Shown piece after piece: positions 38,093-39,975 of a DNA stretch of 64,000 nt. The notes under the pieces were generated by a model that worked only from the letters and a program-made list of their open reading frames with translations, made no database searches and was not told the DNA's origin. The position numbers and the translations under genes were made by a program. Position 1 is the stretch's first letter. The number at the start of each line of letters is the position of its first letter. This DNA is from an uncultured Clostridia bacterium (GTDB taxonomy: Bacteria; Bacillota; Clostridia; Oscillospirales; Ruminococcaceae): NCBI GenBank assembly GCA_946567425.1, contig CAMNXF010000013.1:22545-86544 (forward strand), read 5' to 3'.

Positions 38093-38121
38093 TTGACAAC
38101 TTGAAAAAAATCGTGTATAAT
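38093..38121 (+). promoter_or_regulatory. Consensus sigma-A promoter of pckA leader
   Basis: TTGACA (38093-38098), 17-nt spacer, TATAAT (38116-38121). The predicted start point, about 38128, gives a leader of roughly 240 nt. Confidence 0.9.
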
Positions 38122-38173
38122 GGTATTCGTGGAAAGGTTTTTCGGTCGTGGTTTGTCGCGGCGCGGAATCCTT

Positions 38174-38336
38174 AGACCTGTTCGATAACCGGAGAAGTGT
38201 CGTATTGCGTAGGATTTTTGGCAGCGGGAGAAGCGAGGATTCCGCCGTCATACTGTATGTATTACAAGAAAGCCTCGCAAAGTCAGCTGTCAAAAAGACT
38301 AGCAAGACGGCGCTTCGGAGGTTATCGAACAGGTCT
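38174..38336 (+). ncRNA. Long structured leader or small RNA upstream of pckA
   Basis: The strand folds into one rod: 38174-38190 with 38320-38336 (17 bp, perfect); GGA/GGA loop; 38194-38203 with 38307-38316 (10 bp, two G-U); 38205-38212 with 38299-38305 (7 bp, one bulge); GA/GA loop; 38215-38225 with 38286-38296 (11 bp, one G-U). That gives 45 pairs in 163 nt, plus GCGAGG/CCTCGC in the end loop. CGGAATCC (38164-38171) can also pair with GGATTCCG (38237-38244), a pseudoknot. It is transcribed from 38128 and ends 34 nt before the pckA start, with TTTTT at 38346. No known riboswitch class was recognised. Confidence 0.7.
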
Positions 38337-38370
38337 CTTGTAAAATTTTTATGAAACGAGGTTTTTTCCA

Positions 38371-39975
38371 ATGAGCAAGATCGATTTGACGAAGTATGGC
38401 ATTACAGGAACTACGGAAGTCGTTTACAACCCCTCTTATGACGAGTTGTACAAGGCGGAGCTTGATCCCTCCCTTACCGGCTACGATAAGGGTCAGGAGA
38501 GCGAGTTGGGCGCAGTAAACGTTATGACAGGCGTTTACACGGGACGTTCGCCCAAAGACAAGTTCATTGTTATGGACGACAACTCCAAGGACACCGTATG
38601 GTGGACCTCCGACGAGTATAAGAACGACAACCACCCCGCTACCAAGGAGGCTTGGGATGCCTGCAAGGAGATCGCAAAGAAGGAGCTCTCCAACAAGAAG
38701 CTGTATGTAGTTGACGCTTTCTGCGGCGCTAACAAGGACACGAGAATGGCTATCCGCTTTATCATGGAAGTGGCTTGGCAGGCTCACTTTGTTGAAAATA
38801 TGTTTATTAAGCCCACTGCGGAGGAGCTTGAGAGCTTTGAACCCGATTTCGTTGTATACAACGCTTCCAAGGCTAAGGTTGAGAACTACAAGGAGCTCGG
38901 TCTTAACTCCGAGACTGCTGTTATGTTCAACATTACCTCACGCGAACAGGTTATCATCAACACATGGTACGGCGGCGAAATGAAGAAAGGTATGTTCTCG
39001 ATGATGAACTACTATCTGCCGCTTAAGGGCATTGCGGCTATGCACTGCTCCGCTAACACCGATATGGACGGCAAGAACACCGCTATCTTCTTCGGTCTGT
39101 CCGGCACAGGCAAGACCACGCTTTCGACCGATCCCAAGCGTCTGCTTATCGGCGACGACGAGCACGGCTGGGACGACAACGGCGTATTCAACTTCGAGGG
39201 CGGCTGCTACGCAAAGGTTATCGACCTCGACAAGGATTCCGAACCCGATATATACAATGCTATCAAGAGAAACGCGCTCCTCGAGAACGTTACTCTCGAC
39301 GCTGACGGCAAGATCGACTTCACGGACAAGAGCGTTACTGAGAACACTCGCGTTTCTTACCCGATCGACCACATTCAGAACATTGTAAGACCCGTTTCGT
39401 CCGCTCCCGCAGCGAAGAATGTTATCTTCCTGTCCGCAGACGCGTTCGGCGTTCTGCCGCCCGTTTCTATCCTCACTCCCGAGCAGACGCAGTACTACTT
39501 CCTTTCGGGCTTTACCGCTAAGCTCGCGGGTACGGAGCGCGGCATTACCGAGCCTACCCCCACTTTCTCCGCTTGCTTCGGTCAGGCATTCCTCGAACTG
39601 CACCCGACCAAGTACGCAGAGGAGCTTGTCAAGAGAATGCAACAGAGCGGCGCAAAGGCTTATCTCGTAAACACCGGCTGGAACGGCACAGGCAAGCGCA
39701 TTTCCATTAAGGACACGCGCGGCATCATCGACGCGATCCTCAACGGCGACATCAACAACGCGCCCACCAAGAAGATCCCGTACTTCAATTTTGAAGTTCC
39801 GACAGAGCTTAAGGGTGTTGATACGGGCATTCTCGACCCGCGCGACACCTACGCAAACGCTGCCGATTGGGACGAAAAGGCAAAGGATCTCGCACAGAGA
39901 TTTATCAAGAACTTCGCAAAATACGAGGGCAACCCCGCAGGTAAGGCTCTCGTTCCCGCAGGTCCGCAGCTTTAA
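38371..39975 (+). CDS. pckA: Phosphoenolpyruvate carboxykinase (ATP)
   Basis: 534 residues, full length. Interconverts oxaloacetate + ATP and PEP + CO2 + ADP; in gut anaerobes it often runs towards oxaloacetate to fix CO2 during fermentation. Motifs: GRSPKDKF (substrate arginine), [13 protein letters not shown], the P-loop [31 protein letters not shown] (kinase-2 and Mn site) and [11 protein letters not shown]. Codons are strongly optimised, which suggests high expression. It lies behind a 240-nt structured leader and ends at a strong terminator. Confidence 0.98.

What the first reader, a model, noticed from the sequence alone, without database searches (positions are those of the whole stretch)
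38129..38370. Large unassigned RNA structure in front of pckA
45 base pairs in a 163-nt rod with symmetric GGA/GGA and GA/GA loops, G-U pairs and a possible 8-bp pseudoknot, transcribed from a perfect promoter. It matches no riboswitch class I know. It could be a metabolite-sensing leader for a central carbon enzyme, or a separate small RNA ending at TTTTT 38346. A MITE-like element is the alternative.
Basis: partly seen in the sequence, partly recalled or inferred. Interest (0 to 1): 0.75.

Follow-up and report, generated by a model that had tools for sequence, protein, structure and literature searches.

The report
Mobile hairpin inserted before pckA
The large folded structure in front of pckA is a 163-base mobile DNA element that jumped into this gene's leader; its relatives, found across the Clostridia and often in animal guts, keep the same rod-shaped fold on one strand while the letters change, so the folded strand, likely as RNA, is probably what evolution preserves.

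Summary
The rod is real, but it is not a riboswitch. Positions 38174-38336 are a 163-bp palindromic insertion: three close relatives have the same pckA leader without it, and CTT is duplicated at its borders. A covariance model built from 51 copies gives 31 matches in this genome (16 separate places visible in a capped list), and hits 33 of 61 genomes of the neighbourhood and 36 of 291 of the class, this genome included in both. Other copies show TNA, TA or 4-bp target duplications; a second empty site is seen in three relatives. It is more than an ordinary palindrome. Diverged arms stay paired (43 of 49 pairs with compensatory changes). Length stays near 161 bp. Arm mismatches are purine-purine on one strand: 926 against 75 pyrimidine-pyrimidine, 96 of 97 copies. 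One strand's fold therefore seems selected, as RNA rather than single-stranded DNA by my judgement. Several end types share one rod. No Rfam family matches. What the fold does is untested.

The parts
38093..38121 (+). pckA promoter, TTGACA-17 nt-TATAAT; predicted to transcribe the structured strand of the rod
   Evidence: 12 of 12 matches; promoter stretch matched in relatives
38171..38173 (.). target site CTT, left copy
   Evidence: CTT on both sides here, once in three relatives without the insertion
38174..38336 (+). 163-bp MITE; the + strand is the structured strand of the family
   Evidence: absent in G014, G020, G029; covariance model hit 38173-38337, 131 bits on +, 36 bits on -
38174..38190 (+). 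left terminal inverted repeat AGACCTGTTCGATAACC
   Evidence: perfect inverse of 38320-38336
38191..38193 (+). GGA, 5' side of the symmetric purine loop
   Evidence: sequence and fold
38250..38268 (+). conserved apical hairpin and TTACAAG (family form ATACTGTATGTATTTCAAG)
   Evidence: one mismatch to the family pattern; columns nearly invariant in 51 copies
38317..38319 (+). GGA, 3' side of the symmetric purine loop
   Evidence: sequence and fold
38320..38336 (+). right terminal inverted repeat GGTTATCGAACAGGTCT
   Evidence: perfect inverse of 38174-38190
38337..38339 (.). target site CTT, right copy
   Evidence: empty sites
38371..39975 (+). pckA, ATP-type phosphoenolpyruvate carboxykinase, the gene whose leader was hit
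   Evidence: TIGR00224 and PF01293

Best explanation
The rod at 38174-38336 is a 163-bp non-autonomous mobile element (a MITE) that inserted into the pckA leader, and it belongs to a class-wide family whose one-strand rod fold is conserved, likely because the folded strand acts as RNA in the element's own life cycle. Shown here: the insertion, the duplicated target, dispersed copies, a length mostly of 159-165 bp, arms that covary, and arm mismatches that are purine-purine on one strand. Inferred: a transposase supplied in trans moves it, of the IS5 / PIF-Harbinger kind to judge by the TNA and TA duplications of other copies (that link is recalled, and the window copy itself has CTT). Inferred: lineages change their terminal repeats while keeping the rod. 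Less certain: the selected form is RNA read through from host promoters such as that of pckA, a stable self-contained or protein-bound rod that keeps source copies tolerated or active. For pckA the insertion lengthens the leader (TATAAT to ATG) to 249 nt from 71-85 nt in seven relatives; no regulatory role is needed to explain it.
For: Empty sites with CTT once in G014, G020 and G029 and with TA once for a second copy in G020, G021 and G009. TNA duplicated in 15 of 16 GAGCC/GAGCT-ended copies, shuffled maximum 14. Dispersed copies: 11 core matches in the own genome, 31 model matches there, 33 of 61 genomes, 36 of 291 of the class. Covariation: 43 of 49 pairs with compensatory change, score 0.621 against 0.217 shuffled and at most 0.197 slid. 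Strand asymmetry: purine-purine 926 against pyrimidine-pyrimidine 75, G-U 418 against A-C 230 in 97 copies chosen by a strand-symmetric score. The structured strand folds better as RNA in 118 of 119 copies. A pair near the apex is G-U in 32 of 51 copies and never G-C.
Against: No autonomous element with these ends was found. The window copy has CTT, not TNA, and only 5 of 15 GACC-ended copies show matching TA. Copies point with and against flanking genes equally (25 against 26 of 81), so transcription of the structured strand is not favoured by position. A forced global alignment gave no G-U excess in the main cluster. Alignment A2 and the energy test used copies pre-selected for pairing on this strand. 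No transcript data.
Confidence: 0.8

Rival explanations
1. The fold is selected as single-stranded DNA: during replication or transposition one strand extrudes as a hairpin, and the purine loops are landmarks for a protein that handles that strand.
For: The asymmetry fits any single-stranded form; G-A mismatches are also stable in DNA hairpins (recalled); no orientation bias towards transcription.
Against: G-U exceeds A-C (418 against 230) and one apical pair is G-U without G-C, which suits RNA better, though G-T is also tolerated in DNA. Target duplications of 2-4 bp fit DDE transposases acting on double-stranded ends (recalled).
Confidence: 0.25
2. The one-strand pattern is inherited baggage: an ancestral palindrome had purine mismatches and its MITE descendants kept them without any use.
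For: All groups share ancestry, so 14 of 14 groups is not 14 independent events.
Against: Helices changed at 43 of 49 pairs with compensation while loops, apex and length stayed, across distant families of the class.
Confidence: 0.12
3. A metabolite-sensing or other cis-regulatory leader of pckA.
For: Strong fold between promoter and gene.
Against: Close relatives have the pckA leader without it; copies lie at many unrelated sites; no Rfam match.
Confidence: 0.03
4. A separate small RNA gene ending at TTTTT 38346-38350.
For: A T run follows the rod.
Against: That stretch belongs to the native leader of relatives; the scan calls no terminator there, and the one promoter it finds is that of pckA.
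Confidence: 0.03

Closest known systems
YPAL / RU-2 (about 168 bp; passages of PMC2229807)
   Same: Abundant intergenic stem-loop element of nearly the same length, with target duplications and empty/filled site comparisons.
   Different: Described there from Yersinia and Erwinia, with duplications of 3-26 bp, internal inverted repeats and no terminal TA; here the inverted repeats are terminal, duplications are 2-4 bp, and the family is in Clostridia. Sequences were not compared.
Correia / NEMIS and ERIC repeats (passages of PMC2229807)
   Same: Small non-autonomous elements with terminal inverted repeats and TA ends; NEMIS stem-loops are proposed to be cut by RNase III in transcripts, so an RNA-level role has precedent.
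   Different: Other hosts and sizes; the passages seen report no purine loops conserved on one strand and no several end types sharing one core.
Stem-loop sequence families of 40 bacterial genomes (passages of PMC2267715)
   Same: Systematic catalogue of repeated foldable sequences that includes two Clostridium genomes.
   Different: Families are listed per species; the passages state that folding is generally shared by both strands, whereas here one strand folds better in 118 of 119 copies.
Tourist / PIF-Harbinger MITEs of eukaryotes (recalled, no call)
   Same: TWA target duplications and GG/GAGCCTGTT-like ends, as in the GAGCC copies here.
   Different: Eukaryotic; a kinship of the transposase is only a lead because no transposase was found.

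Membership tests
MITE (non-autonomous transposon) | short element with terminal inverted repeats | tested here: met
   163 bp, 17-bp perfect inverted ends; 56 of 77 measured copies 159-165 bp
MITE (non-autonomous transposon) | target-site duplication | tested here: met
   CTT here with empty sites; TNA in 15 of 16 GAGCC/GAGCT copies
MITE (non-autonomous transposon) | dispersed copies and empty sites | tested here: met
   empty sites
MITE (non-autonomous transposon) | no coding capacity | not tested
   a mechanical 115-aa minus-strand frame crosses it; conservation of frames across copies was not examined
MITE (non-autonomous transposon) | autonomous partner with the same ends | tested here: inconclusive
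   none found; assemblies are fragmented and only some genomes were searched
IS5 / PIF-Harbinger mobilised element | 3-bp TNA (TWA) duplication | tested here: inconclusive
   met in 15 of 16 GAGCC/GAGCT copies, but the window copy has CTT and GACC-ended copies TA in 5 of 15
IS5 / PIF-Harbinger mobilised element | related transposase in the genome with matching ends | tested here: inconclusive
   PF01609 and PF13586 genes exist in the own genome but none with these ends was seen
pckA riboswitch or leader motif | conserved in front of orthologous pckA | tested here: not met
   absent from close relatives
pckA riboswitch or leader motif | ligand binding | not testable with these tools
   needs in-line probing
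Rfam families (release 15) | match at the family's gathering score | tested here: not met
   0 in the window; permissive searches of the window stretch and six further loci gave only sub-threshold hits
structured RNA | covariation beyond shuffled and slid controls | tested here: met
   copies pre-selected for pairing
structured RNA | transcript of the structured strand | not testable with these tools
   no RNA-seq available
YPAL / RU-2 | sequence homology to the Yersinia element | not tested
   only passages describing it were seen

The most novel reading that the evidence does not exclude
A class-wide family of mobile structured RNAs: transposon-like elements held together by a constant rod of about 163 bases with purine internal loops, which change their terminal repeats, and thus the transposase they live off, while the folded RNA itself is the part under selection.
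Probability: 0.35. Interest if true: 0.8.

Novelty: new variant of a known kind. Interest (0 to 1): 0.56.

Why it matters
It prevents a false riboswitch call in front of a central-carbon gene and gives one covariance model that recognises a widespread repeat family, absent from Rfam, in Clostridia. If the one-strand fold proves to be RNA, it would be a short DNA transposon whose spread depends on a folded RNA, and it would explain why a palindrome of nearly fixed length keeps fixed mismatches while its ends and arms change.

Tried and rejected
Riboswitch and sRNA readings: rejected on empty sites and dispersed copies. Known RNA family: no match; a mir-957 hit at 24.4 bits against a cut-off of 66 is taken as chance.

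An ISL3 transposase gene looked like a candidate because it holds 30 bp of a rod end, but its own ends differ.

Orientation relative to genes: no bias (naive ORF calling, 81 copies; six loci, copies near contig ends and weakly paired copies left out). Strand test with a forced global alignment and single-linkage clusters: purine excess in 4 of 4 clusters, no G-U excess in the main one; replaced by local alignment. Viral contigs: 0 exact matches to one core pattern; a more permissive search did find phage records.

Rows dropped: of 149 core matches, 128 had 92 nt on both sides and no N; 100 of these had at least 48 enclosing pairs, 97 passed the symmetric score; 63 were kept below 88% identity; 51 entered alignment A2 after 12 with nested inserts, truncation or odd ends were left out. 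Core matches in Vibrio, Moritella, Clostridium tetanomorphum and Chloroflexi records fail the symmetric score and are taken as chance.

Literature: seven searches listed no paper that I recognised as describing this family; passages of PMC2229807 and PMC2267715 were seen, all other papers as listings only. Not-in-print is claimed for these searches of an open-licence library only.

Full report
What is there. The + strand of 38129-38370 folds far better than chance (-108.3 kcal/mol, z -8.9). The rod is 38174-38336: 163 nt, 59 pairs in its minimum-energy fold, ends AGACCTGTTCGATAACC and GGTTATCGAACAGGTCT, and a symmetric GGA/GGA loop. It lies between a 12-of-12 promoter and pckA (TIGR00224). The gene upstream is lgt-like (Pfam LGT above its cut-off; below the NCBIfam cut-offs).

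It is an insertion. Searching with the leader shows G014, G020 and G029, of the same genus, matching query 1-79 and 243-276 side by side with a 3-bp overlap in each. The sequences read ATCCTTGTAAAA where the window has ATCCTT-rod-CTTGTAAAA. The leader from TATAAT to ATG is 249 nt here and 71-85 nt in seven relatives (L006, L008, L010, L012, L014, L019, L026). For L007 and L009 the script started from an earlier TATAAT-like site; the printed sequence shows a short leader without the rod after the conserved promoter. Of the 27 loci tested, 14 gave no call and 4 a spurious one.

It is a family. The core pattern, with up to two mismatches, occurs 11 times in the own genome and in 15 of 37 genomes tested. 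A covariance model built from 51 copies gives 31 matches in the own genome. The capped list shows 16 separate places; the unlisted rest may include weak opposite-strand echoes of the same copies, as seen. It hits 25 of 36 other genomes of the genus and 7 of 24 of the order, 33 of 61 with the own genome. In the class 36 of 291 genomes and 26 of 181 genera match at E 1e-8, own genome included. Stricter filters and limits on candidates make the genome counts lower bounds. One exact core pattern finds 112 or more stretches in named genomes, 80 of them listed, mostly Clostridia MAGs, many from animal guts, a few of them chance. The class is called Clostridia from those names; contigs of G014 have the lengths of named uncultured Clostridia contigs. 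In the window the model finds only 38173-38337 with default filters; unfiltered it gives 131 bits on + and 36 bits on - there.

It moves like a DNA transposon. GAGCC/GAGCT-ended copies have identical TNA flanks in 15 of 16 cases (shuffled mean 7.5, maximum 14 in 10,000). GAGCG-ended copies have TA in 6 of 7, GACC-ended in 5 of 15, GGGCTTG-ended in 2 of 5, and GTAACC-ended copies a 4-bp match in 2 of 3. The window copy has CTT. A second copy (L038, G000:C11:73528-73692) is absent in G020, G021 and G009, with one TA in place of two. Of 20 distant matches read by eye, 7 show TTA or TAA on both sides, 1 shows TCAA and 3 show TA only; the other 9 show none or were not clear. No autonomous element with these ends was found, so the transposase step is inferred, and its IS5 / PIF-Harbinger label is recalled.

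One strand's fold is conserved. In alignment A2, 43 of 49 pairs carry compensatory changes. 88.8% of cells are paired against 65.3% in shuffles; the covariation score is 0.621 against 0.217 shuffled and at most 0.197 when slid. These copies had been pre-selected for pairing, so the percentages are biased upwards. The strand test does not rest on that choice: in 97 of 128 usable copies, selected by a strand-symmetric palindrome score, arm mismatches are purine-purine 926 against pyrimidine-pyrimidine 75, and G-U 418 against A-C 230. The first excess holds in 96 of 97 copies and 14 of 14 groups, the second in 74 copies (17 against, 6 equal) and 11 of 14 groups. On 119 copies, 19 of them distant, it was 21 of 21 and 17 of 21 groups. 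A forced global alignment gave no G-U excess in the main cluster. As RNA the structured strand is more stable than its complement in 118 of 119 copies, means -81.5 and -62.0 kcal/mol (largely the same pre-selected copies). Groups share ancestry: this is one inherited asymmetry that was kept, not many independent ones.

Near-constant frame, changing ends. Of 77 measured copies 56 span 159-165 bp; most of the 12 at 142-145 are end-calling errors of my script inside mismatched ends. The same loops and apex sit in elements with ends GAGCC, GAGCG, GACC, GGGCTTG, GTAACC and others and, in G039, in a longer element with ends GGGCGCGCAAATTAGGGATA. The simplest reading, an inference, is that lineages change terminal repeats, and so transposase, while the rod persists.

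Mechanism and limits. The MITE step is strong (about 0.95 in my judgement). Selection on one strand's fold is likely (about 0.85). RNA rather than single-stranded DNA is a judgement (about 0.6) from the G-U excess and a pair near the apex that is G-U in 32 of 51 copies and never G-C. Copies face either way relative to genes (25 with both neighbours, 26 against both, of 81), which favours neither form. What the fold does is not known. I favour an RNA-level role that keeps source copies tolerated or active, as a self-contained or protein-bound transcript. Here the structured strand is predicted to be part of the pckA message; an effect on pckA is possible but untested.

Compared with what is known. 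YPAL, NEMIS and ERIC are the nearest described kinds (passages of PMC2229807). No Rfam family matches. Seven literature searches listed no description that I recognised. I file it as a MITE on the features tested, and as a new variant because of the one-strand fold, near-fixed length, spread over the class and several end types.

Noticed in passing
L236 from about 1500 (G000:C16:3935): An open ISL3 transposase gene (PF01610) holds a 30-bp stretch identical to the outer end of GAGCC-type rods, in frame, next to DMSK..; a rod remnant exapted into the gene is one reading. The distant ISL3 protein of G015 has a few more residues there.
   Followed up: partly
L004, L052, L095, L098, L100, L224, L230, L238: A small hairpin of about 25 bp (GCGTTTTGCCGAAGGCATAATGCG-like, either orientation) is nested near the apex of several rods: a second, smaller palindromic repeat inside the first.
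   Followed up: no
L343 (G014:C54), about 1438-1511: At the same site where G000 carries rod L038, G014 has a different 74-bp palindromic insert, so this TA looks like a repeated target.
   Followed up: partly
L297 (G062:C2:36727-36769); L226 and L228 (G000:C5): Very short derivatives with the same ends and no core (about 49, 79 and 88 bp), as expected of internal deletions.
   Followed up: no
L293, L307, L308 (G063): Elements with GACCTCCTCGG ends that keep the AAGGC/AACGCAG internal loop but carry a different apex; L293 holds nested palindromes.
   Followed up: no
L049, L063, L083 (G039): A longer intergenic element with ends GGGCGCGCAAATTAGGGATA, at least nine copies, contains the rod core, often at contig ends.
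   Followed up: partly
L358 and L359 (faecal phage records MT835604, MT835719), L360 (Subdoligranulum variabile plasmid record OY725836): A full rod lies on one phage record and on the plasmid record, and a partial one on a second phage record; possible vehicles of transfer. The phage records are marked unverified and could be bacterial.
   Followed up: partly
L106 (Bacteroides sp. MAG) and L123 (Alistipes sp. MAG): Rods occur in two MAGs with Bacteroidota names; wrong binning or naming, or transfer, was not checked.
   Followed up: no
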